A stretch of DNA of 64,000 nt from Lentisphaerota bacterium (GTDB lineage: Bacteria; Verrucomicrobiota; Lentisphaeria; Victivallales; Victivallaceae), in the NCBI GenBank assembly GCA_015061625.1, contig SUWG01000001.1, positions 194,209 through 258,208 of the forward strand, read 5' to 3'. A model generated the notes under the pieces. The model had not been told where the DNA came from. It saw only the letters and a list, made by a program, of their open reading frames with translations, and searched no databases. Positions within the stretch are counted from its first letter, which is position 1. Every line of letters starts with the position of its first letter. Below are positions 11,318 through 64,000 of this stretch, in pieces. Both the position numbers and the translations under genes were made by a program.

Positions 11318-11440
11318 CGGTGGATGCAGTGCGAGGCAAGGTCGCAGCCAAATCAAGGCGAAAGCGAGGGAGTGTATAACCATACTCGACCGAGCTTGAG
11401 TCCGCCGATTTGGCAAGAGATTGTCCGCAATGCGCCACCG
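11318..11440 (+). repeat. Dispersed hairpin element, copy A
   Basis: A 123 bp imperfect inverted repeat bounded by CGGTGG and CCACCG. Inner arms are GCCAAATC (11347-11354) and GATTTGGC (11407-11414), with a terminal hairpin around GTATAACCATAC. Conserved non-paired strings GGCAAGGTCG and CAAGAGATTG are shared with eight other copies in the window. No ORF is conserved in it. Confidence 0.85.
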
Positions 11441-11489
11441 CAGGTTTGATTTTTCACCCAAAATCAGAATAATAATCAACACATCCTTA

Positions 11490-11607
11490 CTCGCGAAGCG
11501 AGCGCTTCACTTTCGCCGCAAGGCGAAAAGCTTCACATTGCGGAGCAATGCTTCACGCCGGGAAGAATTCCCGGCACTTCACGTTGATTTGCGGCACGCA
11601 AATCAAC
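11490..11607 (+). repeat. Array of five short hairpins joined by CTTCAC spacers
   Basis: Hairpins in order: CTCGC/GCGAG, TTTCGCC/GGCGAAA, ATTGC/GCAAT, GCCGGGAA/TTCCCGGC and GTTGATTTGC/GCAAATCAAC. Each is separated from the next by a linker ending in CTTCAC. Stems differ entirely while the linker is constant. An inverted copy is at 51311-51429 and a partial copy at 11801-11880. Confidence 0.85.
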
Positions 11608-11678
11608 ACCCCGCGCTCCCGTTGGTCGCAAACCGGATCATTTTTTGATAATGATCAGAATTTTGTGAGTAAAAAGTT

Positions 11679-11714
11679 GGAATTGCTTTTATCGTTTGCG
11701 ATAAAAGCAATTCC
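11679..11714. repeat. Perfect 16 bp-stem hairpin
   Basis: GGAATTGCTTTTATCG and its exact reverse complement around a TTTG loop. It lies between the two CTTCAC arrays. It could terminate transcription, but no T-tract follows. Confidence 0.6.
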
Positions 11715-11738
11715 TGCAAAAGTTTTTGGAAGATGGGG

Positions 11739-11780
11739 TGCGGGGAAGAAAACTTTTTTCAAAAAGGTTTCTTCCCCGCA
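11739..11780. terminator. Terminator-like hairpin (GCGGGGAAGAAA type)
   Basis: TGCGGGGAAGAAA pairs with TTTCTTCCCCGCA around an inner AAC-T6-CA5-GG loop that can also pair. A similar design stands after the aldolase gene at 48587-48631, so this may be a recurrent, possibly bidirectional, terminator between converging genes. Confidence 0.5.
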
Positions 11781-11800
11781 AAACAATTTTGCTTCGCTTT

Positions 11801-11880
11801 GCTTCACTTTCGCCGCAAGGCGGAAAACTTCACATTGCGGAGCAATGCTTCATGCCGGGAAGAATTCCCGGCACTTCACA
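11801..11880 (+). repeat. Partial CTTCAC hairpin array
   Basis: Three of the hairpins of the 11490-11607 array (TTTCGCC, ATTGC and GCCGGGAA stems) with the same CTTCAC/CTTCAT linkers, in the same orientation, ending just before the stop codon of the BspA-like gene. Confidence 0.8.
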
Positions 11881-11891
11881 TTAATAATTGC

Positions 11892-14162
11892 TTACCGCCT
11901 TGTCACCTTACACCAGCCGGGGAAAGCTCCTTCTGCGACCTGACAATCCCGTGGAATTGAAATCGCTTTCAAACTGACACAGTAGATAAATGCATCTTTT
12001 TCAATGACGGTAACGCTGTCAGGCACAGTTATTGCGGACAAACGGCGGCAATGCGAAAACGCATCGGCAGTGATAACCGTTACCCCATCCGGAATAACGC
12101 AACGGCTAACGGCATGGTTTATTACTCCGGTAACTTTTTTACCATCCTCACTTAACACGCATACTCCGATGCCTTCGGCCAATCCTGCAAGCCGGGCATT
12201 TTCTGCTTCCCGGTCAGCACAGAGGCTTGCTGCCTGCTGATACAATCTTTGCATTTGCTGCTGCTGATTGCTGACAAATTCCAGATATTCTCTCTGCATT
12301 TCCAGATAACGGCGTTGGGCTTCGGCATAAGCCGCCGCATTGTCACTCTCTCCGGGTTCCCGGTGGATGACCCGGCAGCCGTCATAAAAAACATCTTCAC
12401 CCAACCGGCAATTTTTAACTATTGAAACCGACTCCAGCGAAAATGACCGGAACCAGCCTTTATTAAACGCCTCATCCCCGATATACGTCACACTGTCGGG
12501 AATGAAAACGCTGACCAGTGATGAGCAGTTGTAAAACGCCCCATCCCCGATAGAAACCACTCCATCGGGAATTATCACTTCCGTAAGATCACTGCACCCC
12601 TCAAAAGCCCGGTCGCCGATGGCAGTCACCCCATCCGGAATGACACATCCGGTAATACTTTTATCCGTAACACCGATCACCGTTTTACCATCGTCACTTA
12701 AAATGCACACCTCAAAGCCCAGAGCGATCCTTCCCTTTTCCAATTTTTCTCTCTGTTCCTGATCGAGTGCTTCCGCTTCCCGGCCCGATCTTAAGATTTC
12801 CCGGATCAATCTTGTGATTTCCAACTGACGGGCTCTGGCATTTTCTGCTTCCACCGAACTTTGCCAACGTATTTCAATGCGGGTGGAAAGATCAAAAGAG
12901 ATCCGGTCAAAACGGCAATTCCCCGGCAGGGAAACCCGGCTTATCTGACCGAAAAACAATGCATCATTGCCAAATGAGCGATTGCCGATTTCAGTCACAC
13001 TGTCAGGCACAAAAACACTGGTCACCCGGCTGTCGATAAATACATAATCTGCGATTCTCACCACCCCATCCGGCACAATGTAATGACCGGAACCGCTGAC
13101 CGGAAAATACAATAATACTTTTTTCCGGTTGTCGATCAATGCTCCGCATTCATCAAGGGTGAAGACCGGATTACCGGATGCAACTGCCACTGCTTTGACC
13201 TTATAGAATGCGGCTTCCCCGATTTCAGTTATTTGAACCGGGATCGTGATATTCAAATTTGCACACAGCGCAAATGTCCTGGTCCCGATGGCAGTCACAC
13301 TGACCGGGATCGTAACTGCAGTCAGACTTTTGCAGTTGTAAAACAGATCGTTGGCAAGGGCCGTAATTCCGGCTGGTATGGTGATCGAAGTCAAACTTTC
13401 ACAGTTGTAAAATGCACATACTCCGATACTTCTCAAACTTGAAGGCAAAGTTGCCGAAGTAAGTTTTTTACAACCGTCAAAAACACTGTTGCCGATCGTT
13501 ACCACTCCTTCAGGAATGACGATGGAAGTCAGATTTTCACACCCCTGAAATGCTCCGTACTCGATCGAAGTAACACTGCCGGGGATCGTGACCGAAGTCA
13601 GATTTTTACAACCGGCAAATGCCTTGCGCCCGATCGAAGTGATGCCGGATGGCAAAGTTACCGAAGTCAGACTTTTGCAGTTGTAAAACAGATCGTTGGC
13701 AAGGGCCGTAATTCCGGATGGTATGGTGATCGAAGTCAAACTTTCACAGTTGTAAAATGCACATACTCCGATACTTCTCAAACTTGACGGTAAAGTTGCC
13801 GAAGTAAGTTTTTTACAACCGTCAAAAACACTGTTGCCGATCGTTACCACTCCTTCAGGAATGACGATGGAAGTCAGATTTTCACACCCCTGAAATGCTC
13901 CGTACTCGATCGAAGTAACACTGCCGGGGATCGTGACCGAAGTCAGATTTTTACAACCGGCAAATGCCCTGCGCCCGATGCGCGTCACCCCATCCGGAAT
14001 GACTGCTGAAACGGCACTTTCCTGACAGTAGGTCACAGTCGTACCTTCCTGATTGAATCTCATGCCCTGTTCTCTGGCGGCCTGTAACTCCGCCTCACGG
14101 TTTCCGGCAAAAAGCATATTACTCAAAGTGAATACCGCCAACAGAAAAATGATTTTTTTCAT
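11892..14162 (-). CDS. BspA-like leucine-rich repeat (LRR_5) surface protein
   Basis: 756 residues with a signal peptide (MKKIIFLLAVFTLSNMLFAG), so exported. It is built mainly from about 23-residue repeats of the type TSVTIPGSVTSIGxxAFxGC, the Treponema pallidum/BspA leucine-rich repeat, in an N-terminal block (about residues 55-430) and two later blocks separated by Glu/Arg-rich coiled-coil-like linkers. A third theme, LSDDGKTVIGVTDKSI, precedes the later blocks. Such proteins mediate adhesion or protein binding in host-associated bacteria; the partner here is unknown. No anchor or C-terminal sorting domain is visible. The gene contains a recent internal duplication of five repeats. Confidence 0.85.
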   Translation of the reverse strand: MKKIIFLLAVFTLSNMLFAGNREAELQAAREQGMRFNQEGTTVTYCQESAVSAVIPDGVTRIGRRAFAGCKNLTSVTIPGSVTSIEYGAFQGCENLTSIVIPEGVVTIGNSVFDGCKKLTSATLPSSLRSIGVCAFYNCESLTSITIPSGITALANDLFYNCKSLTSVTLPSGITSIGRKAFAGCKNLTSVTIPGSVTSIEYGAFQGCENLTSIVIPEGVVTIGNSVFDGCKKLTSATLPSSLRSIGVCAFYNCESLTSITIPAGITALANDLFYNCKSLTAVTIPVSVTAIGTRTFALCANLNITIPVQITEIGEAAFYKVKAVAVASGNPVFTLDECGALIDNRKKVLLYFPVSGSGHYIVPDGVVRIADYVFIDSRVTSVFVPDSVTEIGNRSFGNDALFFGQISRVSLPGNCRFDRISFDLSTRIEIRWQSSVEAENARARQLEITRLIREILRSGREAEALDQEQREKLEKGRIALGFEVCILSDDGKTVIGVTDKSITGCVIPDGVTAIGDRAFEGCSDLTEVIIPDGVVSIGDGAFYNCSSLVSVFIPDSVTYIGDEAFNKGWFRSFSLESVSIVKNCRLGEDVFYDGCRVIHREPGESDNAAAYAEAQRRYLEMQREYLEFVSNQQQQMQRLYQQAASLCADREAENARLAGLAEGIGVCVLSEDGKKVTGVINHAVSRCVIPDGVTVITADAFSHCRRLSAITVPDSVTVIEKDAFIYCVSLKAISIPRDCQVAEGAFPGWCKVTRR
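13321..13979 (-). repeat. Internal tandem duplication, 345 bp period
   Basis: Bases 13321-13634 recur almost unchanged at 13666-13979, offset exactly 345 bp, that is five LRR units of 23 codons. Identity falls sharply outside these limits. Confidence 0.85.
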
Positions 14163-14209
14163 CTTCTTTCTCCATATTGAAATTAAAGTGAGTAATTGAA
14201 TCTTCTATA

Positions 14210-14238
14210 AATATATCCTCTGTCAATGTAAAATACAA
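14210..14238 (-). promoter_or_regulatory. Promoter of the BspA-like gene
   Basis: Minus strand TTGTAT (14233-14238), 17 bp, TATATT (14210-14215). Confidence 0.6.
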
Positions 14239-14326
14239 TAAACGCAAGATCAAATTTCACAATTTTATGAATAAAGCCATTTTGAAACCATTTTATGCAA
14301 AAAAACGTAAAAACCGCTTTTTACAG

Positions 14327-14356
14327 TTGTACTTAACGGAGAATCCATGCTATATT
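14327..14356 (+). promoter_or_regulatory. Promoter of icd
   Basis: TTGTAC (14327-14332), an 18 bp spacer and TATATT (14351-14356), 51 bases before the icd start. Confidence 0.5.
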
Positions 14357-14407
14357 ATATATAACATTATACTTTTTTCCAACAATTCCCAAAAGAAGGA
14401 GTTTTTC

Positions 14408-15658
14408 ATGAGCGAATCACACATCGTCCGACCGGCCAACGGCGAATATGTCATCAATAATGCCAACGGTTTGCAGGTTCCGGATAATCCCATTATCAGT
14501 TTCATCGAGGGCGACGGTATCGGTCCGGATATCATGAAAGCCTCTATGTATATGTGGGACAGTGCCGTAAAAAAAGCCTACAACGGTAAAAAAGCGATCG
14601 CCTGGCAGGAGGTCTACGCCGGTGAAAAAGCCAATACCGTCTACAATGAAACCATCTGGCTGCCGCAGGAAACCATCGATGAGATCCGCCGCTCGCTTAT
14701 CGCCATCAAAGGCCCTCTGACCACCCCGGTCGGCGGCGGATTCCGTTCCCTCAATGTCGCTCTGCGTCAGGAACTTGACCTCTATGCCTGCGTGCGCCCG
14801 GTGCGCTATTTTGAAGGTGTCCCCTCACCGGTCAAGGCCCCCGAAAAGACCGATATGATCGTATTCCGGGAAAATACCGAAGATATCTACGCCGGTATCG
14901 AGTGGATGGCCGGCACCGATGAGGCCGCCAAAGTCATCGCCTTTCTCCGTAACGAAATGGGCGTCAAAAAGATCCGCTTCCCCGAAACTTCCAGCATCGG
15001 TATCAAACCGGTTTCCAGCGAAGGCAGTGAAAGATTGATCCGTGCCGCGCTGGATTACGCCGTGGCCAACAAACGCAAAAGCGTCACCCTCGTCCACAAA
15101 GGCAATATCATGAAATTCACCGAGGGCGGCTTCAAAAACTGGGGTTACGAATTGGTCAAACGCGAATATGCCGATGTGGCGGTGGCCTATGCCGACTGCA
15201 ACGGCGTCGCCCCGGAAGGCAAAATTCTGGTCAAAGATTGCATCTGTGACGCCTTTTTGCAGCAGATCCTCACCCGTCCGGATGAGTACGATGTGATCGC
15301 CACGCTCAATTTGAATGGCGACTACGTTTCCGATGCTCTTGCCGCCTGTGTCGGCGGTATCGGTATCGCTCCGGGAGCCAATATCAACTACACCACCGGC
15401 CATGCGGTCTTTGAAGCGACCCACGGCACGGCTCCCAAATATGCCGGTATGGATAAGGTCAACCCCTGCAGTCTGGCCCTTTCCGGTGAAATGATGCTGC
15501 GCCACCTCGGCTGGAACGAAGCCGCTGATCTGCTCATTCAGGGCATCAGCCGCGCGATCGCCGACCGCATGATGACCTATGACCTCGCCCGTCTGACCGC
15601 CGGTGCCACGGAATTGAGCTGTTCCGGATTCGCCAATGCGGTCGTTGAGAGGATGTAA
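14408..15658 (+). CDS. icd: Isocitrate dehydrogenase (NADP-dependent)
   Basis: 416 residues from the ATG at 14408, supported by AGAAGGAG; a longer upstream frame runs through the promoter and is not used. It oxidises isocitrate to 2-oxoglutarate. It is clearly of the E. coli Icd type: [19 protein letters not shown] includes the active-site Ser equivalent to the E. coli regulatory phosphorylation site, [14 protein letters not shown] follows, then [17 protein letters not shown] with the Lys-Tyr pair, and TYDLARL with Tyr and Arg that favour NADP. No kinase/phosphatase gene (aceK) is seen. Confidence 0.95.
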
Positions 15659-15666
15659 TTTGCATC

Positions 15667-16926
15667 ATGCCGATCACTTCCGCATTCCGCCTGCTTTTTT
15701 ATCATTCCGGCCAAGACGGTTCGCCGTTGCCGCCGGATGATACTCTCTTGCGCCATGTGGAAAATCTGCTTGACGGTCAAAATCTGCCGTTAAAACTCAA
15801 CCTGCTGGCTAAAGTGACCAGTGCGGAAAAGTTCCCGGAAAAATTCTTACCGGCACTTTTCAACGCATTGATCACTTTCCGGGTCATGCCCGCAGATCTG
15901 CTGGCGGAAAACTTTTCCGCCGACACCGCATTTCTGTTGCAGAATTCCGTTGCATTGTGCCGTTATCTGCGCAATTTATCCGGCTCTGTCAAGGATGATC
16001 CGGCTCTGCTGCCCAGTGCAAAGGATATCTTTTCCCGGTTGCCGCAAACTTCTGATATCAGGGAATTTGCCCGTATCCTCTCTGCCGCCGATCCCTTTGG
16101 CGGCAGCAGAGTTTTCAACTTCCGCAACCGTAATTTTCTCCCGGTTCAACCCTCATCGGTCAAAAGTGTGGATAAGTTTTTCGGCTTTCCCGGTGTCCGG
16201 CTGGCGTTGCAGGAGCATTTCCGGGATTTTGCCGCCGGAAAGACCAGTTTGCCGCTGTTGATCAACAGTCTGCCCGGTTACGGCAAAACCAGTATGGTGA
16301 TCTCCTTTGCGCTTTCAGTTCCCGGTACCGTGGTGATACTGCCCGATCCGGATGCCCTGGAATTTGCCTGGGAAGAGTTGATCGCCGCCTTGAGCGCACG
16401 CAAAGATCACCGCTTCGTCCTCTTTTTCGATGACATCGATCCCCGGAGCATCAACTGGTACAACTTCCGCACCAATGTCGGCGGAGCCTTTACCCCGCCG
16501 GAAAATATCATGCCGGTACTGACGGCAAATTATGAGTTCCCCCCCAGCATCCTCTCCCGCGGCCGCCGGATATCCTATCCGGTTTTCGACGAGGAAAGAT
16601 GTCTGGAAATGATCGAGGATTTCCTCGCCACATTCGGCATGAAAAAGCCGCCGCGCAACATCGTTTCGCTCATGGGCGCAGAATACACCGAGGAATTCGG
16701 GCAGAAAAAATTTACGGAATTATCCCCCCGTACTTTGATGCGCCATCTGGCCAACTATGAGAAAGATCCGCGCAAACGCAAACAGATCGTGGAACTTTCC
16801 GGCGGCGGCATGATCACCAAACCGGATGCCGAATTGTTTTATGAATTCAATATCGAATTGATGCGTTCACTCTACGGCGAAGAATATATCCAGCGTCTGC
16901 TCAAGGAAAGGTTGCGTTCATTATGA
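15667..16926 (+). CDS. DUF815-type AAA ATPase
   Basis: 419 residues. Walker A is LPGYGKTS and Walker B is RFVLFFDDIDP; before them comes a helical N-terminal region of about 190 residues. The order and the later ANYEFPP and ELSPRTLMRH segments fit the DUF815 ATP-binding family, whose biochemical role is not well defined. It starts 8 bases after icd, and mreC overlaps its end (ATGA), so it is probably expressed with the cell-shape genes; a link to cell-wall assembly is only suggested by position. Confidence 0.75.
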   Translation: MPITSAFRLLFYHSGQDGSPLPPDDTLLRHVENLLDGQNLPLKLNLLAKVTSAEKFPEKFLPALFNALITFRVMPADLLAENFSADTAFLLQNSVALCRYLRNLSGSVKDDPALLPSAKDIFSRLPQTSDIREFARILSAADPFGGSRVFNFRNRNFLPVQPSSVKSVDKFFGFPGVRLALQEHFRDFAAGKTSLPLLINSLPGYGKTSMVISFALSVPGTVVILPDPDALEFAWEELIAALSARKDHRFVLFFDDIDPRSINWYNFRTNVGGAFTPPENIMPVLTANYEFPPSILSRGRRISYPVFDEERCLEMIEDFLATFGMKKPPRNIVSLMGAEYTEEFGQKKFTELSPRTLMRHLANYEKDPRKRKQIVELSGGGMITKPDAELFYEFNIELMRSLYGEEYIQRLLKERLRSL

Positions 16927-17795
16927 AAAAATTTCCCTCCAGAAGCAGCCGCAGTCCTCAACTGGTGTTGACCGTAACGCTGGTGATTTTGGGGATCGTC
17001 ATCATTCTGACTGCCGGATTCAATGTGGTGCGCTATGCGCTGGGCAGATTTGCCGACGGATTTTTCTATCCGTATATGAAATTGACCACCCCGTCGGAAA
17101 AACTTACCGATCCGTCACTGCTGATGGCCGATAAACATGATCTCGCCGCCAGAGTCGAGCGGCTTACCGCCGCCAACCGGGAACTGGCTCTGCAGGGACA
17201 ATCCGCCGCCGTGCTGATGGAGGAAAACCGCCGTCTGCGTACCATGCTCGGCTTGCGTGACCGGATCTCCCCCCGCTACACCGTGGCCGGAATAATTTTG
17301 CGTGATCCCCGCCACTTTTCCGCCGGATTCACCATCGACAAAGGCAGCCGTGACGGCATCGTGCCGGGAGCGGCAGTGGTCGATGTGAATATCAATGGAC
17401 AACTGCTTTTAGTCGGTGTCATCACCGAAGTCGGAGCCAGAACCAGCAAAGTTACCACCTTGCTCAATGCTTCTCTGCGGGTCTCCGGTGAAGTGAGCTG
17501 CAACCGCATGGTGGGCTTCATCAATGCCGGGGAAGTCGTGCCGGAAACCGGCAACATCCCTTTCGGTATGCTGCCGCCGCGTGAAGATTACATCCACGGC
17601 AGTATGGTCACAACGACCGGTTTTGAGCGCGGCATACCGCCGGGCATCAAGATCGGCGAATTGAATACCGGCAATGCCGGCACTTCACACGCCCAGGAAG
17701 ATTTCAGTTGTGAATTGATCCCGGCGGTACGTTTTGAATCACTCCGTTTCGTGGCAGTGGCTCTGATCCCTGTCGCTCCGGAGGAGTTGAGATGA
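16923..17795 (+). CDS. mreC: Rod shape-determining protein MreC
   Basis: 290 residues. An N-terminal membrane helix (LVLTVTLVILGIVIILTAGF) is followed by a coiled coil (LAARVERLTAANRELAL) and two beta domains with the typical segments RDPRHFSAGFTIDKGSRDGI and LNASLRVSGEV. It is a periplasmic scaffold that links MreB filaments to the elongation penicillin-binding protein. mreB is not next to it; DUF815 sits where mreB often is. It overlaps mreD by 4 bases. Confidence 0.9.
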   Translation: MKKFPSRSSRSPQLVLTVTLVILGIVIILTAGFNVVRYALGRFADGFFYPYMKLTTPSEKLTDPSLLMADKHDLAARVERLTAANRELALQGQSAAVLMEENRRLRTMLGLRDRISPRYTVAGIILRDPRHFSAGFTIDKGSRDGIVPGAAVVDVNINGQLLLVGVITEVGARTSKVTTLLNASLRVSGEVSCNRMVGFINAGEVVPETGNIPFGMLPPREDYIHGSMVTTTGFERGIPPGIKIGELNTGNAGTSHAQEDFSCELIPAVRFESLRFVAVALIPVAPEELR

Positions 17796-26822: not shown

Positions 26823-26948
26823 TGATTCGTCGCAGTGTGCGGCAAGGTCGCCGTCAAGTCAAGGCGGAGGTTGGGGAGTGTACGACTGTACTCGACCCAA
26901 CCGACGACCGCCGACTTGACAAGAGATTGCCCGCAATGCGACGAATCA
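26823..26948 (+). repeat. Dispersed hairpin element, copy B (overlaps rubrerythrin stop)
   Basis: Outer arms TGATTCGTCGCA (26823-26834) and TGCGACGAATCA (26937-26948); inner arms GTCAAGTC and GACTTGAC; next arms GGTTGGG and CCCAACC; tip GTACGACTGTAC. The last three bases are the stop codon of the minus-strand rubrerythrin gene. Confidence 0.85.
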
Positions 26949-27479
26949 ATAGTTGGTGGCTTCGATTTCGAAGTAAGCTTGGGGGTGCTTGCAGGTCGGG
27001 CAGAGTTCCGGGGCTTTGTCGCCGATGTGAATATGCCCGCAGTTGCGGCATTCCCACCGCTGGGGACCGGTTTTGACGTAAACTTCGCCTTTTTCGAGGT
27101 TTTCGATCAATTTATTGTAGCGGTTTTCGTGACGTTTTTCGATTTCGGCGACGCGGGCGAGCTGACGTGAAAGTTCAGCAAAACCTTCAGCGGCGGCGAC
27201 TTCGGAAAATTCGCGGTACATTTCGGTCCATTCCTCGTGTTCACCGGCGGCGGCGGCTTTCAGGTTATCGAGAGTGGAACCGATACCGTCGAGGGCCTTG
27301 AACCAGAGTTTGGCGTGTTCTTTTTCGTTATTGGCGGTAGCTTCAAAGATGGCGGCGATCTGTTCGTAGCCTTCTTTGCGTGCTTTGGAGGCGAAATAGG
27401 TGTACTTGTTTCTGGCCTGTGATTCACCGGCGAATGCGTACCAGAGATTGGCTTCAGTTTTGCTTCCTTTGAGTTCCAT
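26946..27479 (-). CDS. rbr: Rubrerythrin
   Basis: 177 residues. The N-terminal ferritin-like four-helix domain has the paired iron-binding motifs (GESQARNKYTYFASKA; ANNEKEHAKLW; later AEIEKRHENRYNKL) and the C-terminal rubredoxin-like domain has two CxxC pairs (WECRNCGHIH, LCPTCKHPQAYFE). It reduces hydrogen peroxide in anaerobes using electrons from rubredoxin or an NADH-dependent reductase. It follows the Fur/PerR gene by 30 bases, so peroxide-responsive control is likely. Its stop codon lies inside a dispersed hairpin element. Confidence 0.95.
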   Translation of the reverse strand: MELKGSKTEANLWYAFAGESQARNKYTYFASKARKEGYEQIAAIFEATANNEKEHAKLWFKALDGIGSTLDNLKAAAAGEHEEWTEMYREFSEVAAAEGFAELSRQLARVAEIEKRHENRYNKLIENLEKGEVYVKTGPQRWECRNCGHIHIGDKAPELCPTCKHPQAYFEIEATNY

Positions 27480-50018: not shown

Positions 50019-51158
50019 ATGGATATTCAATCCGCGCGTAAAAAAATCGATCGTATCGACGATGAGATACTGAAACTTTTTTCCGAACGTATGCGTATCG
50101 GCGGCGAACTGGGCAAAATCAAACAGGCCGGTCATCTGCCCATCGAAAACAGCGAAAGAGAACGGGAAATTCTGCTCAAAATCACCAAAGAATCCGGAGA
50201 AAGTCTGCAAAGTTGCGCCAGAATACTCTTTTCCACCCTCTTTGAATTGAGCAAATCATATCAACGCCGCCAGAGCAGTGAATTCAGTGATTTTTCCCGG
50301 ATGATCCTCGATTCGCTGAATAATACCCCGAAACTTTTCCCCGCCATGGCCAAAGTCGGCTGTTGCGGCGTGCCGGGTGCTTACGCCCAACTCGCCGCCG
50401 ACCGCCTCTTTCAACTGGCGGATATCACCTACTTCAACGACTTCAATGCCGTCTTTCAGGCGGTGGAAAAAGGTCTCTGCCAGTACGGGGTCCTGCCGAT
50501 CGAAAATTCCACTTCCGGAACTATCGATCAGGTTTACGACCTGATGCTCGATCACAAATTTCACATCGTGCGCAGTTGCCGTCTGCAGGTGCGCCACAGT
50601 CTCTTACTGCCGCCGGGCGCGGAAATTTCCGATATCAAAGAGGTCATTTCCCATGAACAGGGCTTGAAACAGTGCGCCGGTTTCCTGAAATCCCTCGGCA
50701 ATATCAAACGCACCACTGCCGGAAGCACCGCTCTGGCCGCCAAAATCGTCAGCGAATCCGGCCGCAAGGATATCGCCGCCATCGCCAGCAGTGAATGTGC
50801 CGGGATCTATTCTTTGCATATCGGTGCTGAAAATATTCAGGATCGGGATTCAAATTATACCAGATTCATCTGCATTTCACGCCAGCCGGAAATCTATCCC
50901 GGTGCATCGAAAATCAGCATCATGGGCGTACTGCCGCATAAACCCGGCGCATTATACAGTCTGCTCGCCCGCTTCGCCGTACTCGGAGTAAATCTGACCA
51001 AACTCGAAAGCCGCCCCAAACGCAACGAGAACTTTGAATATATGTTCTACTTCGACTTTGAGGCCTCTCTGGCCGATGCACAGGTCAGACAACTGCTCGC
51101 CGAATTGCTCGCCGATAACGGCCGCTTCACGTTTTTAGGTAATTATCTGGAAATTTGA
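50019..51158 (+). CDS. pheA: Bifunctional chorismate mutase / prephenate dehydratase
   Basis: 379 residues from the ATG at 50019 (GGTAAGG upstream; the GTG at 50013 is less likely). Residues 1-85 are an AroQ mutase (ARKKIDRIDDEILKLFSERM). The dehydratase domain carries GVPGAYAQLAADRLF, GVLPIENSTSGTIDQVYDL, HEQGLKQCAGFL and the DRDSNYTRF motif with the catalytic Thr. A C-terminal ACT domain (HKPGALYSLLARFAVLGVN; LTKLESRP) gives feedback inhibition by Phe. It makes phenylpyruvate. A dispersed hairpin element begins 26 bases after the stop. Confidence 0.96.
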   Translation: MDIQSARKKIDRIDDEILKLFSERMRIGGELGKIKQAGHLPIENSEREREILLKITKESGESLQSCARILFSTLFELSKSYQRRQSSEFSDFSRMILDSLNNTPKLFPAMAKVGCCGVPGAYAQLAADRLFQLADITYFNDFNAVFQAVEKGLCQYGVLPIENSTSGTIDQVYDLMLDHKFHIVRSCRLQVRHSLLLPPGAEISDIKEVISHEQGLKQCAGFLKSLGNIKRTTAGSTALAAKIVSESGRKDIAAIASSECAGIYSLHIGAENIQDRDSNYTRFICISRQPEIYPGASKISIMGVLPHKPGALYSLLARFAVLGVNLTKLESRPKRNENFEYMFYFDFEASLADAQVRQLLAELLADNGRFTFLGNYLEI

Positions 51159-51184
51159 TATCCTGATTTTTGGGAAAATCCGTA

Positions 51185-51303
51185 CGGCGGATGGATCGTG
51201 AGTTGAGGGCGAAGTCAAACCAAGGCGAAAGTGAGGGCGTGTACTATGTACTCAACCGAACTTGAGTCCGACAGTTTGACGAGAGATCAATCACGAGCCG
51301 CCG
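51185..51303 (+). repeat. Dispersed hairpin element, copy C
   Basis: Bounded by CGGCGG and CCGCCG; inner arms GTCAAACC and AGTTTGAC; tip GTACTATGTAC. The base-proximal arms (GGATCGTGAG with CAATCACGAGCC) differ from other copies but still pair. Confidence 0.8.
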
Positions 51304-51310
51304 CCGGGGT

Positions 51311-51429
51311 GTTGATTTGCGTGCCGCAAATCAACGTGAAGTGCCGGGAATTCTTCCCGGCGTGAAGCATTGCTCCGCAATGTGAAGCTTTTCGCCTTAT
51401 GGCGAAAGTGAAGCACTCGCTTTGCGAGT
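51311..51429 (-). repeat. CTTCAC hairpin array, inverted copy
   Basis: The same five hairpins as at 11490-11607, in reverse order and orientation, with GTGAAG linkers on the plus strand. The TTTCGCC hairpin has a TTAT loop here and GCAA there, so the loop varies while the stem holds. Like the first array it lies next to a dispersed hairpin element. Confidence 0.85.
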
Positions 51430-51482
51430 AAGGATGTGTTGATTTATAAAAAATAATTGCTATCCTGATTTTTGGGAGAATC

Positions 51483-51566
51483 CGCCCGCAATGCGCCACC
51501 GCACCCGGTGGCAGATTTTTATTTGATTTTTATTTCACCGGCGCAATGCGCCACCGCACCCGCTCC
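51483..51566 (+). repeat. Two solitary right ends of the dispersed hairpin element
   Basis: CCCGCAATGCGCCACCGC (from about 51481) and GCGCAATGCGCCACCGC (from 51541) match the last part of the element without the rest; between them is GGTGGCAGATTTTTATTTGA, repeated again near 51759. They look like remnants of deleted copies. Confidence 0.6.
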
Positions 51567-51688
51567 CGGTGGATGCAGTGCGAGACAAGGTCGCCGTCAA
51601 ATCAAGGTAACGGTGAAGGAGTGTACTATGTACTCGACTGAACCGTTATCCGCCGATTTGACAAGAGATTGACCGCAATGCACCACCG
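51567..51688 (+). repeat. Dispersed hairpin element, copy D
   Basis: 122 bp, CGGTGG to CCACCG. Arms GTCAAATC/GATTTGAC and TAACGGT/ACCGTTA, tip GTACTATGTAC. It is near-identical to copy E. Confidence 0.85.
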
Positions 51689-51820
51689 GACGCTTATTTT
51701 CGCCGCCAATGGCGGCGACAAGCGTTCCGCCGCTTGACCACGTCCGGGTAAGCACCCGGTGGCAGATTTTTATTTGATTTTTTATTTGATTTTTCCAATC
51801 AGGCACCGCCGCCCACCCAG
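51689..51820. other. Spacer between hairpin copies D and E
   Basis: No gene. It holds a hairpin CGCCGCC/GGCGGCG flanked by ACGCTT and AAGCGT, and two runs of TTTTATTTGATTTT. Confidence 0.5.
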
Positions 51821-51942
51821 CGGTGGATGCAGTGCGAGACAAGGTCGCCGTCAAATCAAGGTAACGGTGAAGGAGTGTACTATGTACTCGACTGAACCGT
51901 TATCCGCCGATTTGGCAAGAGATTGCCCGCAATGCGCCACCG
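51821..51942 (+). repeat. Dispersed hairpin element, copy E
   Basis: 122 bp, CGGTGG to CCACCG, arms GTCAAATC with GATTTGGC (one G-T pair) and TAACGGT/ACCGTTA. Confidence 0.85.
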
Positions 51943-51952
51943 CCCCCGCACC

Positions 51953-52074
51953 CGGTGGATGCAGTGTGAGGCAAGGTCGCCGCCAAATCAAGGCGAAAGC
52001 GAGGGAGTGTACTATGTACTCGACCGAGCTTGAGTCCGCCGATTTGGCAAGAGATTGCCCGCAATGCACCACCG
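51953..52074 (+). repeat. Dispersed hairpin element, copy F
   Basis: 122 bp, CGGTGG to CCACCG, arms GCCAAATC/GATTTGGC and the GCGAAAGCGAGG-type upper stem of copy A. It ends 5 bases before the stop codon of the minus-strand lipoprotein gene. Confidence 0.85.
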
Positions 52075-52079
52075 CTCTC

Positions 52080-52499
52080 TCAATTTTGTGTCCGGTAAGT
52101 TACGCTTTCCTGCCAAACCTCCCGGCCCTGACAAAAAAGTTTCAAAGTCAGTTTCTCCCCGGTAACTTCCGGACGCAACTCCCACTGCGAACCGGCCGTG
52201 ACCCGCTGATTGCCGGTGATCTTGCCGCTTTCACGCAATACAAACTGCGCCAGCGCATCCGCCGCCTCATCAGCAGTGCCAACCAGTATGATCTTCTCCC
52301 CCGGACAACGCTCCAGCATCGCCAGTGTCAGCGCGGAAACCATATAATCCACCGCTTCACGCACGGTGTAAACTTTATCTCCACTATTCTGCGGATTATC
52401 CAGAATATTTCCCTGCGGCGGTTCACCTTCCGGGAGCAGCCAGCAGCAGCCGCTCAAAATCACCGCCAATAACAGTGACGATAAAAATTTCATTCTCAT
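52080..52499 (-). CDS. Small lipoprotein at the end of the exbBD operon
   Basis: 139 residues. A signal peptide with lipobox AVILSGC, then a Pro/Gly-rich linker and a compact domain beginning VREAVDYMVSALTLAMLERC and ending in beta strands (GEKLTLKLFCQGREVW). I do not recognise the family. It overlaps the zinc-ribbon gene by 4 bases and is the last gene of a minus-strand run from exbB. An outer-membrane or inner-membrane partner role in the TonB-like system is possible from context only. Confidence 0.65.
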   Translation of the reverse strand: MRMKFLSSLLLAVILSGCCWLLPEGEPPQGNILDNPQNSGDKVYTVREAVDYMVSALTLAMLERCPGEKIILVGTADEAADALAQFVLRESGKITGNQRVTAGSQWELRPEVTGEKLTLKLFCQGREVWQESVTYRTQN

Positions 52500-57212: not shown

Positions 57213-57222
57213 TTAAATATCC

Positions 57223-58287
57223 TCATTGAGCCGGAGTTTCAACTGCGGCACTATCTTTTTTCGGAGCGGCAGCCGCTTTGTCGGCGGCAATTTTTTCCTT
57301 GATGCGGTCAGAGATCTTCTGCTGCAATTCCGGGTTATCCGCCAACACCTGTTTGGTCTGATCCCGGCCCTGACCGAGCTGCTCGCCATCAAAACTGAAC
57401 CAGGAACCGCGCTTCTCGATGATGCCCATATCCGTGGCCACATCCAGCACTGAACCGGTCTTGCTGATACCCTCATTATACATGATATCGAATTCCGCCA
57501 CTTTGAATGGCGGTGCCATCTTGTTCTTGATGACCTTGACTCTCGCCCGGTTGCCGGTGACCGTATCGCCGACTTTGATCGCCGTGGATTTGCGGATATC
57601 CATACGCACTGACGCATAGAACTTCAATGCATTACCGCCGGGAGTCGTTTCCGGATTGCCGTACATCACCCCGATCTTTTCCCGGATCTGGTTGGTGAAA
57701 ATCACACAGGTCTTGCTCCGGCTGGCCGCACCGGTGATCTTGCGCAACGCCTGGGACATCAAACGCGCCTGCAAACCGACGTGGGAATCACCCATCTGGC
57801 CCTCGATCTCCGCTCTGGGAACCAGAGCCGCCACCGAATCCACCACCAGCACATCCAAAGCATTACTGCGGATCAGGGCATCGACGATATTGAGCGCATC
57901 TTCGCCGCAGTCGGGCTGGGAAACGACCAGTTTATCCACATTCACCCCGATCTTCTGCGCATAAGCCGGATCAAGGGCGTGTTCAACGTCGATGATCGCC
58001 GCATGGCCGCCGGCGGCCTGGGCATTGGCGATGACGTGCAGACACAAGGTGGTCTTACCGCTGGATTCCGGACCGAAAATTTCCACGATCCTGCCCTTGG
58101 GCAAACCGTAGATGCCCAGTGCCAGATCCAGTGCCATACTGCCGGTGCTGATCACCGGCACGTCGGTAACGGCGGCATCCTCGCCGAGGCGCATGATCGA
58201 ACCTTTACCGAACTCCTTTTCGATCTGGCTGATAACCAGTGAAAGACTCTTTTCCTTATCCACTGCGGGAATATCTTTTTCTGCCAT
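57223..58287 (-). CDS. recA: Recombinase RecA
   Basis: 354 residues, standard length. Walker [15 protein letters not shown], Walker [12 protein letters not shown], loop L1 [17 protein letters not shown], loop L2 [20 protein letters not shown] and the C-terminal Lys/Ala-rich tail. It forms filaments on single-stranded DNA for homologous recombination and triggers the SOS response. I see no clear LexA box in the 23 bases between gyrB and recA, so it may be transcribed from the gyrB promoter. Confidence 0.97.
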
Positions 58288-58310
58288 AATATTTTATCCT
58301 TAAATTTTCA

Positions 58311-60791
<2,481 letters not shown>

Positions 60792-60813
60792 TTAAAAATT
60801 TTTACTCGCCCTT

Positions 60814-60842
60814 ACAATACACCTTTCCGGGGTAAAATTCAA
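60814..60842 (-). promoter_or_regulatory. Promoter of gyrB
   Basis: Minus strand TTGAAT (60837-60842), 17 bp, TATTGT (60814-60819), about 53 bases before the start codon. Confidence 0.5.
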
Positions 60843-60884
60843 GCCCTTTTTCTCTTTAGAGAAAAGAATACTGCAAAAAAAACT

Positions 60885-61037
60885 CCGGCGGCGATTCGTG
60901 GCCGATCTCTTGTCAAACCGTCGGACTCAAATTCGGTCGAGTACACAGTACACCTTGTCCGCCGGAGCCTTGGCGAAGGCGGATCCCTCATATCGCTCCT
61001 TGCAAAACCCGACATTGCCTCGCAATCCATCCGCCGG
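60885..61037 (-). repeat. Dispersed hairpin element, copy G (diverged, longer)
   Basis: Bounded by CCGGCGG and CCGCCGG. It carries the conserved CTCTTGTCAAACC, GGTCGAGTACACAGTACACC and CCTCGCAATCCATCC strings in inverted orientation, but the upper arm is about 30 bases longer than in other copies. Confidence 0.7.
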
Positions 61038-61045
61038 GTGTGGTG

Positions 61046-61102
61046 GAGCGGGCCGGTGAGCGGCCTGACGGCCTTGACAGGGGCTGCGCCCCCGTACCCC
61101 CC
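61046..61102 (-). repeat. GGGGTAyGGGG two-hairpin module, inverted copy
   Basis: On the minus strand GGGGGGTACGGGGGC, CAGCCCC, then TGTCAAGGCC and GGCC-type return, as in the copies at 26666 and 26751. Tandem 9-base TACGGACAA units follow at 61105-61130. Confidence 0.6.
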
Positions 61103-61160
61103 TGTACGGACAATACGGACAATACGGATACTAACAGCAAGCCGCATAAGGTCGTCTTTG

Positions 61161-61612
61161 TCACGGGAAACCGCGCAGACCGCAGTCGAATGCACTTTTG
61201 CGGAGCAAAAGCCGCCGCAACAATAGTTGCAAGGATGAGCAAGCGGTCGAGCAATAGCCGGCATGTGCAGTGGAAAGGCCGCCCAGGCAAGCCGTAAGGC
61301 GAAGCCGCTTGACGACCGGCAAAGCCGGTCTGGCGGCCGCCCCACGGAATCGACGGCGTTACTTCATAAAGGAATTCACGCCCGGAGCATCTCTTTGTCA
61401 CGGGAAATCTCCGGCAAAAGGTGGGGAGTTTGAGGGGAGGAAAAGGCGTTAGCGTTTGCCTCCCCTCAAGCGAACAAGAGCATATAACCGCTCCACCGGC
61501 TTATAAGCGGCAACAATACCGGTGCAGGCTCGCGGCTCGCTTGCGCTCGATATGCGCCCGGTACGGATAGGTACGGAGTTGTACGGATAAGTACGGAGCA
61601 ACGCCAGCCGGG
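61161..61612 (+). repeat. Left copy of a ~450 bp inverted repeat flanking the epimerase/thioredoxin genes
   Basis: From TCACGGGAAACCGCGCAG to the decamer tract and CGCCAGCCGGG. The reverse complement recurs at 63455-64000 with high similarity; shared stretches include GGCATGTGCAGTGGAAAGGC (one difference), CGGCCGCCCCACGGA and GAGCATCTCTTTGTCACGGG. Decamers GTACGGATAr are repeated at 61561-61600. No credible gene lies within. Confidence 0.85.
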
Positions 61613-61630
61613 AAATGCCCCTGCCAGCTA

Positions 61631-61667
61631 TCCGTTAATTACCGTTAATTACCGTTTGTTACCGTTG
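61631..61667. repeat. Tandem decamer repeat
   Basis: Units ACCGTTAATT, ACCGTTAATT, ACCGTTTGTT and ACCGTTGAGC, period 10. Confidence 0.7.
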
Positions 61668-61688
61668 AGCCGAAACACCACGCGGCTG

Positions 61689-61812
61689 ACGGCGGATGCA
61701 GTGCGTGGCAAGGTCGAAGTCAAACAGAGGCAACGGCGAGGGAGCATACTATGTATGTGACCGAGCCGGTGTCCGATAGTTTGACAAGAGATTGCCCGCA
61801 ATGCGCCACCGT
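61689..61812 (+). repeat. Dispersed hairpin element, copy H
   Basis: Outer ACGGCGG/CCACCGT, inner arms GTCAAAC and GTTTGAC, upper arm ACGGC/CCGGT-type, tip CATACTATGTATG instead of GTACTATGTAC: the tip stem has changed on both sides. It ends 2 bases before the stop codon of the epimerase gene. Confidence 0.85.
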
Positions 61813-61814
61813 AA

Positions 61815-62993
61815 TTACTTCATATCCTTGAGCAGCTGTGCAGCAAAGAGTACGCCGCGCGGCACATGGAAGAAAGTTTTCCACTTGCCGCCTTTAAGAG
61901 TGTGGGTGACTTCGCCGCGGCGGTTGCAGTAGGCGAACCATTCACCGTATTCCGGATCGGGGAAGTGGTTCCAGGTATATTCATCGACCTTTTGGAACCA
62001 GTCGGCGAATTTGGCATCTCCGGTGGCTTTGTAAGCGTGCAGACAGGCCAGAGTGGCTTCGTTATGCACCCACCAGAGTTTCATATCGTGCTGAAGTTCC
62101 AAATGGGGTTTGCCCAGCGCATCCATGAAGTAGAAAATGCCGCCGTATTCCTTATCCCAGCCGAAGTCAAGCGTATTGGAAATGATCTTGGTGATCGCAG
62201 CGATTTTTTCTTCCGAACCGGGGACATCTTTGAGATAATTGAGCAGAAACCACATTGCTTCAAGCACATGGCCGGGATTCATCTGGCGGCCGATACTGCT
62301 TTCCAGATCCGGCTTATCGCCATCGACGGGCATATTTTCAAAGACCAGACCGAAATCTTTGCTGTAGAATTTGTTAAGCACCATATCCACAGCGATATCC
62401 ATGGCAGAATCAAATTCGTTGCTGCCCAGACTTTCTTTCATGATAAGCCCCAGATTGGCCATCATCATATACTGGCCCAGTGAGAGGTAGGCGGTCTTAC
62501 CGGCAAGCGACTTATTCCACTGCAAAGCGGCATTGGTACTTTTGGCGCGTTCCAGATAGTTATTCATCGCTTCGACGGCGGCATCGGCATAGATTTTTTC
62601 GCCGGTGACCTGATAGAGTTTGGCCCCGCCCATAGCGGCAAAGCAGTCGGAAAAGAGGCTGTAAGGAGCCATCGCCGGCACGCCCTGACGGTTGAGAGCG
62701 AAGTAATATCTGCCTTTTTCATCCCGGCCGTTTTTGTAGAGGAAGTCGAAACCCTGTTTGGCGATGTCGATATAGGAATCTTTTTTGTAACCGGCCAGAT
62801 AGATTTCAGCGAACATATAGACGATGCGCCACTGCATCCACATATATTTGGTCGTATCGTAGACCGAACCGTCACGGTCAAGACTGGTGAAGTAACCGCC
62901 GAATTCTTTATCGACACAGTTTTTCTCCCAGAAAGGGATCACGGAGTTGACCAGTTCGTTTTCATACTTTTCACAATATGCCTGCCAATTCAT
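61815..62993 (-). CDS. AGE-family epimerase (N-acylglucosamine 2-epimerase / cellobiose 2-epimerase-like)
   Basis: 392 residues, an (alpha/alpha)6 barrel. Typical signatures are CVDKEFGGYFTSLDRDGS, KYMWMQWRIVYMFAEIY, GRQMNPGHVLEAMWFLL with a catalytic His, and LWWVHNEATLACLHAY with a second His. Family members epimerise GlcNAc/ManNAc, cellobiose or mannose at C2; the substrate here is open, and the absence of nearby sialic-acid genes argues mildly against GlcNAc. No signal peptide. It lies divergent from a thioredoxin gene, and a hairpin element abuts its stop. Confidence 0.88.
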   Translation of the reverse strand: MNWQAYCEKYENELVNSVIPFWEKNCVDKEFGGYFTSLDRDGSVYDTTKYMWMQWRIVYMFAEIYLAGYKKDSYIDIAKQGFDFLYKNGRDEKGRYYFALNRQGVPAMAPYSLFSDCFAAMGGAKLYQVTGEKIYADAAVEAMNNYLERAKSTNAALQWNKSLAGKTAYLSLGQYMMMANLGLIMKESLGSNEFDSAMDIAVDMVLNKFYSKDFGLVFENMPVDGDKPDLESSIGRQMNPGHVLEAMWFLLNYLKDVPGSEEKIAAITKIISNTLDFGWDKEYGGIFYFMDALGKPHLELQHDMKLWWVHNEATLACLHAYKATGDAKFADWFQKVDEYTWNHFPDPEYGEWFAYCNRRGEVTHTLKGGKWKTFFHVPRGVLFAAQLLKDMK

Positions 62994-63041
62994 AAGTCAA
63001 AATACCTTTCATGTTATGACTCTGGTGAACGTATCCGGCAT

Positions 63042-63100
63042 ACTATATCACCATTTGCCGGGCAATGCAACTTGATTTTTGTAATAAAGAAGATTATATT
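63042..63100. promoter_or_regulatory. Back-to-back promoters of the epimerase and thioredoxin genes
   Basis: Minus strand: TTGCAT (63065-63070), 17 bp, TATAGT (63042-63047). Plus strand: TTGATT (63072-63077), 17 bp, TATATT (63095-63100). The two -35 boxes are one base apart, so polymerases should exclude each other. Confidence 0.7.
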
Positions 63101-63124
63101 GATAAACGGAAAGGAGAATTCTCT

Positions 63125-63439
63125 ATGGATATCATCGAACTCAACCCTGAAAGTTTCAAAGCGATACTGCTCAAACCCGCCGCGTTGATCGATTTTTACG
63201 CTCCGTGGTGCGGCCCATGCCGCAATATGGCACGGGAACTGGAAAAGTTTGCGGCAGATCATCCGGAAATCGCCATCGGCAAAGTGAATATCGAAAGTGA
63301 GGAAAATAAAGAACTTGCCGCCACTTTTGATGTTTCCACGATACCGTCGATCTTCTTTTTCCGCAACGGTCAACTGGTCAAACACGTCACCGGATTTTTC
63401 AGCCGCACTGCCTTGGCCGATGAATTGCTCCGGCAGTGA
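63125..63439 (+). CDS. trxA: Thioredoxin
   Basis: 104 residues from the ATG at 63125 (AAAGGAGAA upstream). The active site is FYAPWCGPCRNMARELEKFA, and the cis-Pro loop STIPSIFFFRNGQ is in place. It is a cytoplasmic disulfide reductase. No thioredoxin reductase gene is next to it. The right inverted repeat begins 15 bases after the stop. Confidence 0.95.
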   Translation: MDIIELNPESFKAILLKPAALIDFYAPWCGPCRNMARELEKFAADHPEIAIGKVNIESEENKELAATFDVSTIPSIFFFRNGQLVKHVTGFFSRTALADELLRQ

Positions 63440-63454
63440 TTTGGTAGTGTCTTT

Positions 63455-64000
63455 CCCCGGCTGGCGTTGCTCCGTACTCATCCGTACTCATCCGTACTTA
63501 TCCGTACCGGGCATACATCGAGCGTAAGCGAGGTGCATATTGTTGCCGTTAATTAGCCGGTGGAGCGTTTATATGCTCTTGTGCGTAGTGGGGAGGGACA
63601 CGCTTCGCCTTTCCCTCCCCACTCCCCACCTTTTGCCGGAGATTTCCCGTGACAAAGAGATGCTCCGGGCGTGATTTCCCCTCGGAAGTAACGCCGTCGA
63701 CTCCGTGGGGCGGCCGCCAGACCGGCAAAGCCGGTCGTCAAACGGCTTCGCCTTACGGCTCGCCTGGGCGGCCTTTCCACTGCGCATGCCGGCTATTGCT
63801 CGCCCGCTGGCTCATCCTCGCAACTATTGTTGCGTCGGCTTTTACTTTACCTTGTTGGCAATCTCTTGCCAAGTCATCGGTCGTCAACTCGGTCGAGTAC
63901 GGTCGTACACTCCCTCGTTGCCGCCTTGACTTGGCTTCGACCTTGCCTCACAATGCAAAGTAAAAGTGCATTCGACTGCGGTCTGCGCGGTTTCCCGTGA
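63455..64000 (-). repeat. Right copy of the inverted repeat, interrupted by a hairpin element (runs off the window)
   Basis: Reverse complement of 61161-61612, starting with CCCCGGCTGGCGTTGC and decamers TCCGTACTCA (63471-63510), and continuing to the window end at GGTTTCCCGTGA. Differences from the left copy are mainly substitutions, short length changes in the GC-rich middle, and the hairpin element at 63849-63956. Confidence 0.85.
63839..63966 (-). repeat. Dispersed hairpin element, copy I, inside a palindrome
   Basis: CTTTTACTTT (63839-63848) and AAAGTAAAAG (63957-63966) are perfect arms around the element core (63849-63956), which has arms GCCAAGTC/GACTTGGC and tip GTACGGTCGTAC. In the left inverted repeat the same place is a small hairpin, CTTTTGC-GGA-GCAAAAG (61195-61211), with no element. 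Confidence 0.85.

What the first reader, a model, noticed from the sequence alone, without database searches (positions are those of the whole stretch)
11318..63966. A dispersed ~120 bp hairpin family with compensatory stem changes (nine copies)
Copies: 11318-11440, 26823-26948, 51185-51303, 51567-51688, 51821-51942, 51953-52074, 60885-61037 (reverse), 61689-61812, 63839-63966 (reverse). Directly seen: the inner stem is GTCAAATC/GATTTGAC, GCCAAATC/GATTTGGC, GTCAAGTC/GACTTGAC, GCCAAGTC/GACTTGGC or GTCAAAC/GTTTGAC in different copies; the next stem is TAACGGT/ACCGTTA or GGTTGGG/CCCAACC; the tip is GTACTATGTAC, GTACGACTGTAC or CATACTATGTATG. Both sides change together. Between stems, unpaired strings GGCAAGGTCG and CAAGAGATTGCCCGCA stay nearly constant. 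Conserved internal loops plus covarying helices are the usual mark of a selected RNA (or single-stranded DNA) structure rather than decay of a simple repeat. I do not recognise the family.
Basis: partly seen in the sequence, partly recalled or inferred. Interest (0 to 1): 0.82.

Follow-up and report, generated by a model that had tools for sequence, protein, structure and literature searches.

The report
Mobile hairpin riding other repeats
Nine stretches in this piece of a gut bacterium's genome belong to a family with over a hundred copies that can each fold into one long hairpin and keep their pairing while their letters change; it is likely a mobile element that rides inside other repeats and would spread by its shape.

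Summary
Nine copies are present, eight full-length and one (60883-61038) rearranged. The family has 120 matches in the window's own genome and occurs in 31 of 137 genomes of the order, Lentisphaeria MAGs from animal guts where the record title names a source. On a structure-blind alignment of 102 copies, 37 of 43 pairs change on both sides; covariation is 0.403 against 0.180 shuffled and at most 0.083 slid. Tandem G.A mismatches and an excess of G.T over A.C show that one strand is kept foldable. The hairpin is cargo in several dispersed repeats. In one relative it is the core of a short transposon (MITE) with IS256-like ends and an 8-bp target duplication (18 of 18 scored). The same MITE exists without it, and another repeat has empty sites and sites filled by 129-130 bp without target duplication. 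Free copies often end at the 3' end of an antisense gene. I read it as a non-autonomous mobile hairpin, probably moved as a folded single strand by an unknown enzyme. A structured-RNA role is the main rival. No Rfam family reaches its threshold in the window.

The parts
11316..11443 (+). hairpin copy 1; MITE-type right flank (decayed TIR remnant GTTTGATTTTTCACCCAAAATCAGAATAATAA follows)
   Evidence: R1 139.6 bits; flank
26823..26949 (+). hairpin copy 2; own outer stem TGATTCGTCGC/GCGACGAATCA; 3' end overlaps the stop codon (TCA = TGA reversed) of the antisense gene
   Evidence: R1 123.1 bits; stop position
26946..27479 (-). rubrerythrin-like gene whose stop codon lies in the base of copy 2 (context)
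   Evidence: Pfam PF02915 2.3e-26; of 9 relatives shown only G017 has a (weak, 23.8 bits) hairpin match directly after this gene
51183..51309 (+). hairpin copy 3 (GGATGGATCGTG...CACGAGCCGCC outer stem)
   Evidence: R1 123 bits
51565..51691 (+). hairpin copy 4 (TAACGGT/ACCGTTA stem)
   Evidence: R1 142.6 bits
51819..51945 (+). hairpin copy 5
   Evidence: R1 139.7 bits
51951..52077 (+). hairpin copy 6; 3' end 3 bases from the stop codon of an antisense ORF (52080-52499 -)
   Evidence: R1 145.2 bits
60883..61038 (-). hairpin copy 7, rearranged: 5' half replaced, extra palindrome near the tip
   Evidence: R1 34.5 bits; sequence
61184..61225 (+). hairpin-free copy of the class D repeat (AGTCGAATGCAC-TTTTGCGGAGCAAAA-GCCGCCGCAACAATA); counterpart of the filled copy at 63839
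61688..61814 (+). hairpin copy 8; abuts the stop codon of an antisense gene
   Evidence: R1 133.7 bits
61815..62993 (-). N-acylglucosamine 2-epimerase gene ending at copy 8 (context)
   Evidence: PF07221 3.3e-59
63839..63965 (-). hairpin copy 9, sitting in the class D repeat (outer stem TTTTACTTTGC/GGTAAAGTAAAA)
   Evidence: R1 121.2 bits; flank

Best explanation
The nine sequences are copies of one dispersed repeat of about 125 bp that can fold end to end into a single long hairpin, and it likely spreads as a non-autonomous mobile element that would be recognised by its folded single strand and inserted by an enzyme acting in trans. Shown: the repeat's fold is kept by compensatory changes; its stem ends sharply at a fixed size whatever the letters of the outer stem; it occurs within several different dispersed repeats, one of them a MITE with IS256-like ends and 8-bp target duplications; and one repeat is seen both empty and filled by 129-130 bp with no duplication of target. 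Inferred: that this insertion goes through single-stranded DNA, that the + strand (with its tandem G.A mismatches and G.T wobbles) is the recognised form, and that selection on the fold works through the element's own copying rather than through a service to the host. Not identified: the enzyme. Not explained: why free copies so often end at the 3' end of an antisense gene.
For: Covariation: 102 copies, 92.2% of cells paired (79.3% shuffled), 37 of 43 pairs covary, score 0.403 against 0.180 shuffled and 0.043-0.083 slid. Only one strand is kept foldable: over 102 rows two mismatch sites are GA/GA in 77 and 86 and never TC/TC; in the 33 inner pairs G.T outnumbers A.C 119 to 34 cells (56 to 14 among 40 rows under 85% alike). 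Structure-defined ends: in 154 copies without MITE flank the outermost pair forms in 95%, the next positions outside in 49, 44 and 42%. Insert in another repeat: GGCTTGATCGA|CGCTTTT is empty at 2 own sites and 2 sites of G008 (nearly so, 1 extra base, in SIG89) and filled by 129-130 bp at 4 own sites, no target duplication. A MITE with both ends and a 7/8 duplication lacks the hairpin (L252, read by eye), while 18 of 18 scored SIG89 MITEs with it have 7-8 of 8 duplicated bases. Strand polarity in the own genome: hairpin + strand on the C-rich strand in 76 of 98 copies on contigs with a clear skew (summed), with no matching gene-orientation bias (28 with both neighbours, 37 against both). Recent bursts: many near-identical copies in SIG89.
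Against: No recombinase is tied to it. Y1 transposases are missing from the own genome and from 5 of the 7 other genomes with 40 or more copies (G008 and G015 have one), and IS256 transposases from the own genome and SIG89; these are incomplete MAGs. The fold is also kept in MITE-borne copies, which carry terminal repeats and, since a hairpin-free MITE exists, should not need it. Strand polarity is clear only in the own genome; SIG89 strands are mixed on many contigs. On the polar contigs the lagging-strand template carries the - strand, the opposite of what an IS200/IS605-like route using the + strand predicts (recalled). The four filled sites of repeat F carry similar hairpins and may descend from one insertion. 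By pair, the G.T excess is weaker: 13 pairs against 8. Conserved T.G pairs (GTTTTGC/GCAAGGC in 48 of 225 copies) and tandem G.A are as typical of RNA.
Confidence: 0.48

Rival explanations
1. It is a structured RNA module: copies are transcribed inside mRNAs or on their own, the + strand RNA is bound or cut by a host protein, and the repeat families spread it.
For: Sheared-type tandem G.A, conserved tandem T.G pairs and G.T excess all fit RNA. In SIG89 MITE copies between same-direction genes lie 23 with the genes and 11 against. Comparable Bacillus repeats are often part of mRNAs (PMC3446304, passages read).
Against: In the own genome no orientation bias to genes: 28 with both and 37 against both. 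Free copies that abut a stop codon are antisense to that gene (15 of 110 within -3..+4), so its mRNA carries the - strand. No promoter, transcript or partner was tested.
Confidence: 0.3
2. It is simply the passive core of a MITE plus intergenic repeats; pairing is kept by quasipalindrome template switching and gene conversion between copies, not by selection on a fold.
For: Copies share cores with swapped outer stems and show internal deletions between direct repeats such as GGCAAG. MITEs whose transcripts form stable stem-loops are ordinary (PMC10969869, passages read).
Against: Template switching would erase mismatches, yet GA/GA at two sites, GG/GA and GNN/AA loops persist in most of 102 copies with a fixed strand. 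G.T cells outnumber A.C cells. The same fold with other letters occurs in other genera.
Confidence: 0.12
3. It is a host 3'-end element (terminator or RNA protector) placed after the ends of genes.
For: 27 copies lie between convergent genes against 4 between divergent ones. 29 of 194 copies outside SIG89 end within 6 bases of an antisense stop codon (13 of 98 own, 16 of 96 other). Both copies of G116 start 4 bases after the end of an antisense tRNA gene. After rubrerythrin, G000 has a full copy and G017 a weak one.
Against: 0 of 54 SIG89 copies end at an antisense stop codon. In that gene's transcript the less stable - strand would fold. 8 of 9 relatives have no match directly after rubrerythrin. 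At another gene 2 of 5 species have it.
Confidence: 0.1

Closest known systems
MITEs of insertion sequences (e.g. QMITE2, bcr1)
   Same: Short, non-coding, intergenic, terminal inverted repeats and short target duplications in the SIG89 copies; foldable core.
   Different: The hairpin itself has no fixed terminal sequence, also lives outside the MITE, in one case without target duplication, and the MITE exists without it.
REP/BIME repeats and RAYT transposases
   Same: Many dispersed palindromes, some in head-to-tail clusters.
   Different: No GTAG head in 225 copies; about 125 bases against 20-40 (PMC3733652, abstract in the listing); no Y1 transposase found in the own genome.
ERIC / Correia-NEMIS intergenic palindromes
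   Same: ERIC is listed at 127 bp and folds as a single long stem-loop (PMC2267715, passages read); intergenic.
   Different: No sequence match in 20,395 E. coli records. Here outer stems differ between copies yet stay paired, and tandem G.A sites are kept; I did not test ERIC or Correia for either.
Repetitive hairpin-forming elements of sponge mitochondrial DNA (PMC2800124, abstract and passages)
   Same: Hairpin elements that invade intergenic DNA of related genomes repeatedly.
   Different: Mitochondrial, of unrelated sequence as far as named; here a bacterial family with conserved mismatch motifs.
IS200/IS605-type single-strand transposition (recalled)
   Same: Hairpin ends, no target duplication, replication-strand bias.
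   Different: No Y1 transposase found in the own genome; the polarity is on the other strand.

Membership tests
Any Rfam 15 family (incl. Acido-Lenti-1, Gut-1) | score at or above the gathering cut-off | tested here: not met
   0 hits in the window. Relaxed scan of 51000-52400 only: Gut-1 26.2 bits of 50 beside the hairpins, PK-repBA 15.6 of 45 beside them, Magnesium-II 15.1 of 40 overlapping one copy, E 5.5.
IS256-like MITE | terminal inverted repeats and target duplication around the unit | tested here: met
   SIG89: 18 of 20 fetched copies scored, all 7-8 of 8 bases duplicated; the ends of the other two were not found by the pattern. 154 of 248 copies in all lack such flanks by a loose pattern, so this holds for part of the family.
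IS256-like MITE | parent IS256-family transposase with matching ends | tested here: inconclusive
   Full-length transposase only in G016, ends GATAACGTCC.. similar not identical; 5 of 30 genus genomes have any match.
REP/RAYT | GTAG or CGTC head at the foot of the palindrome | tested here: not met
   GTAG 0 of 225 on either side; CGTC 6 and 12.
REP/RAYT or IS200/IS605 | Y1 transposase in the genome | tested here: not met
   None found in G000, G002, G003, G012, G017, G020; 8 of 24 genus genomes have a match, 7 over the cut-off, G008 and G015 among them.
IS200/IS605 | insertion without target duplication | tested here: met
   Repeat F empty and filled sites; possibly one event.
Integron attC | paired RYYYAAC and GTTRRRY cores at the ends | tested here: not met
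   Both in 2 of 225; core motifs recalled.
ERIC | sequence similarity to enterobacterial ERIC | tested here: not met
   No blastn match of one copy in E. coli genomes.
Structured RNA | covarying base pairs | tested here: met
   shared with ssDNA structures, so not decisive.
Structured RNA | a transcript | not testable with these tools
   No RNA data available.

The most novel reading that the evidence does not exclude
A transposable hairpin defined by shape rather than by end sequence: a 125-base rod with a conserved tip and mismatch ladder whose outer stem may be any complementary pair, which invades other repeats (even other transposons) without target duplication and docks at the 3' ends of genes, protein-coding and tRNA alike.
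Probability: 0.25. Interest if true: 0.85.

Novelty: new variant of a known kind. Interest (0 to 1): 0.6.

Why it matters
Bacterial palindromic repeats are common; I know of few (from memory) that show both a strongly covarying, strand-specific fold and empty/filled sites as cargo of other repeats. If the shape is what is copied, this family gives hundreds of natural variants to map which pairs and mismatches an unknown enzyme needs. It would make testable whether such repeats are selected as DNA or as RNA.

Tried and rejected
Rfam at gathering level and relaxed on one region: nothing for the hairpin. Viral contigs with the pattern CAAGGTCGNNGNCAARTCAAGG: 0. E. coli, phage and plasmid records with one copy: none. 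IS256 and Y1 transposases as resident movers: not found in the own genome. Same-site comparison with relatives for two window copies: flanks too diverged to read an insertion boundary; on checking these loci with the model I found a weak match directly after the rubrerythrin gene of G017, which I had missed by eye. One site in another genus (L351): hairpin in G113 and G114 with different outer stems, no match in G112, G111, G110; the flanks do not show the target. A Helitron-like route was not pursued (search listing only). In the genome-collection pattern scan the hits in Rhizobium, Burkholderiales, a Deltaproteobacterium and Muribaculaceae gave no model match and were taken as chance.

Rows dropped: for the covariation count I gave 102 of 139 length-filtered distinct copies, leaving out 37, mostly the divergent GTTTTGC type and damaged ones; this makes the alignment cleaner and the percentages higher. 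One search used copies of 118-133 bases only. Contigs C43, C11, C6 and C42 (12 copies) were left out of the skew sum because their skew was near zero or undefined. The polarity sum covers 110 of the own genome's copies, those on stretches I fetched. Gene calls came from a simple codon-usage script of mine, not a standard gene finder.
Full report
What is there. The nine stretches are present at the given places. A covariance model from eight of them (R1) finds 120 matches at E<=1e-3 in the window's own genome (2.7 Mb, 44 contigs; 150 of 415 first-look candidates were scored). It also finds matches in 13 of 40 near genomes, the own one included, all of the same genus. A second model (R2, from 102 copies) finds matches in 31 of 137 genomes of the order, with stricter filters: 20 of the genus (14 of the genus are listed without), 9 in other genera of the family, 2 in another family. 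Records named by the pattern scan are Lentisphaerae/Lentisphaeria MAGs (SIG80, 81, 89, 90, 93; RGIG5542 sheep colon; RGIG4094 roe deer caecum), apart from four chance hits.

The fold. Reading the + strand, the copy folds into one rod. The outer stem is followed by GGCAA/TTGCC, a GG/GA mismatch pair, TC/GA, a 3x2 loop GNN/AA and the helix G.CAA.TC/GA.TTG.C. Then comes the mirror loop AA/GNN, GG/CC, two short helices separated by tandem G.A mismatches, and the tip GGAG-T-GTAC..GTAC-T-C-GACC. On a structure-blind MAFFT alignment of 102 copies the pairs form in 92.2% of cells, 37 of 43 pairs change on both sides, and the covariation score is 0.403 against 0.180 in shuffles and at most 0.083 with slid partners. 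The shuffles ignore relatedness; the slid controls keep it, but favour a structure taken from one of the rows, as this one was. The mismatch sites are GA/GA in 77 and 86 of 102 copies at two sites and in 24 at a third, where 22 are fully paired instead; TC/TC does not occur at them. In the 33 inner pairs G.T cells number 119 and A.C cells 34; by pair the count is 13 against 8, so the excess sits in some pairs more than others. Both facts say that the + strand is the one kept foldable. They do not say whether it is RNA or single-stranded DNA. Copies of other genera keep the plan with other letters: a common variant has GTTTTGC/GCAAGGC with two T.G pairs, and outer stems are often private to one copy yet complementary. 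In 154 copies without MITE flank the outermost pair forms in 95% and the next three positions outward in 49, 44 and 42%, so the rod has a fixed length whatever its letters (the model's own length may sharpen this).

How it sits in the genome. In SIG89 18 of 18 scored copies (20 fetched) are the core of a MITE of about 280 bp with ends GATAATGTCCCGAATTTTGTGAAA / GTTATTGTCTCATTTTTTGTGAAA and an 8-bp duplication. The resemblance of these ends to IS256 is partly recalled; an IS256-family element of G016 has ends GATAACGTCC... Traces of the same MITE flank copies in other species and the window copy at 11316. Near-identical SIG89 copies mean recent bursts. Many own copies lie in other repeats, which I labelled B to F.

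Empty and filled sites. Three carriers are seen without the hairpin. Repeat F, GGCTTGATCGA|CGCTTTT, is empty at two own sites and two sites of G008 (one extra base in SIG89), and filled by 129 or 130 bp at four own sites, with no duplication. The four inserts are alike, so this may be one insertion that then spread with the repeat. A MITE in the own genome has both ends and 7 of 8 duplicated bases (read by eye) but no hairpin (L252), and a damaged SIG89 one also lacks it. Class D repeats carry either a short palindrome (window 61184 and three other own places) or the hairpin (window 63839) between the same flanks. The short class C palindrome could also be a deletion remnant, since the filled form has direct repeats at the right places.

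Place and polarity. With a simple gene caller 110 own copies were placed (2 overlap a called gene): 27 in convergent gaps, 4 in divergent ones, 28 with both neighbours, 37 against both, the rest at stretch or contig ends. Gene direction therefore does not set the hairpin's direction, but the contig does: C22 has 1 plus and 14 minus, C36 16 plus and 3 minus. Against gene-corrected GC skew the + strand lies on the C-rich strand in 76 of 98 copies (summed; 12 copies left out); clusters make these not independent. If the G-rich strand is the leading strand, as is usual (recalled), this is the lagging-strand sense. SIG89 copies do not show it clearly. A second regularity is the 3' end of genes. 15 of 110 own copies end within -3..+4 bases of the stop codon of an antisense gene. 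Counted again with reading frames of 100 codons or more, 13 of 98 own and 16 of 96 other copies lie within 6 bases, against 2 and 2 at the other end; in SIG89 0 of 54, against 1. Both copies of G116 begin 4 bases after an antisense tRNA gene, tRNA-Glu and tRNA-Arg, so translation is not what marks the place. After the rubrerythrin gene the own genome has copy 2 and G017 a weak match (23.8 bits), while eight other relatives have none there. At another gene two species of another genus carry the hairpin at the stop codon with different outer stems and three lack it. A second palindrome family, GTTACTTTTCTTTTYACGRRAAAAGAAAAGTAAC, also starts directly after stop codons, so the docking may be a habit of this genome's repeats rather than of the hairpin.

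Reading. The module is found in different carriers, its ends are set by pairing, and one case shows insertion without duplication. I therefore take it as a mobile hairpin, most likely handled as a folded single strand. The strongest objections are that no enzyme was found, that the polarity is on the strand opposite to that expected from a Y1-type route, and that MITE-borne copies keep the fold without needing it to move. The RNA reading answers the last point better and is the main rival. Quasipalindrome correction does not explain kept mismatches or the strand-specific wobble.

Literature. I searched the open PMC library and saw listings only, except passages of PMC3446304, PMC2267715, PMC10969869, PMC2864571 and PMC2817692, and the abstract, outline and passages of PMC2800124. 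None of these listings or passages describes this family; subscription papers are not held. PMC2864571 treats a comparable RNA-or-ssDNA question for the STAXI motif (passage read).

Noticed in passing
L209:2334 (-), L214:5607 (+), L216:4917 (-), L221:2511 (+), L228:1944 (-), L253:1477 (-); minus rows counted on the reverse complement: A second palindrome, GTTACTTTTCTTTTYACGRRAAAAGAAAAGTAAC, begins directly after the stop codon of several genes. Stems of 6 or more starting right after the stop codon were found for 15 of 571 genes, against 0-10 at other offsets and about 1 after shuffling.
   Followed up: partly
L338:1422-1497 with hairpin 1501-1626; L343:1421-1497 with hairpin 1501-1626: Both hairpin copies of G116 lie, antisense, 4 bases after the end of a tRNA gene (tRNA-Glu, tRNA-Arg).
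   Followed up: yes
window 51334-51413 (+): A run of small hairpins separated by GTGAAGC gives a weak Gut-1 (RF01706) match, 26.2 bits of 50; a similar run follows the copy in L024.
   Followed up: no
L233, about 1347-2793: G016 holds an IS256-family element with ends GATAACGTCCGAGAAATTGCGCAC and an open transposase frame of 416 aa, a possible distant relative of the MITE's missing parent.
   Followed up: partly
L205:14714-14967, L222:1-310, L223:2570-2825, L218:2512-2777: Head-to-tail tandem arrays of two or three hairpins with a period of 127-137 bases.
   Followed up: no
L140:4483 (-), counted on the reverse complement: A SIG89 MITE whose hairpin tip carries another inserted repeat of roughly 150 bases.
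   Followed up: no
window 51780-52080 and left flanks of class C copies: Intergenic regions of this genome are chains of several different palindromic repeats (e.g. GGGGTACGGGGGCGAAGCCCC, CCGTTAATTACC arrays).
   Followed up: no
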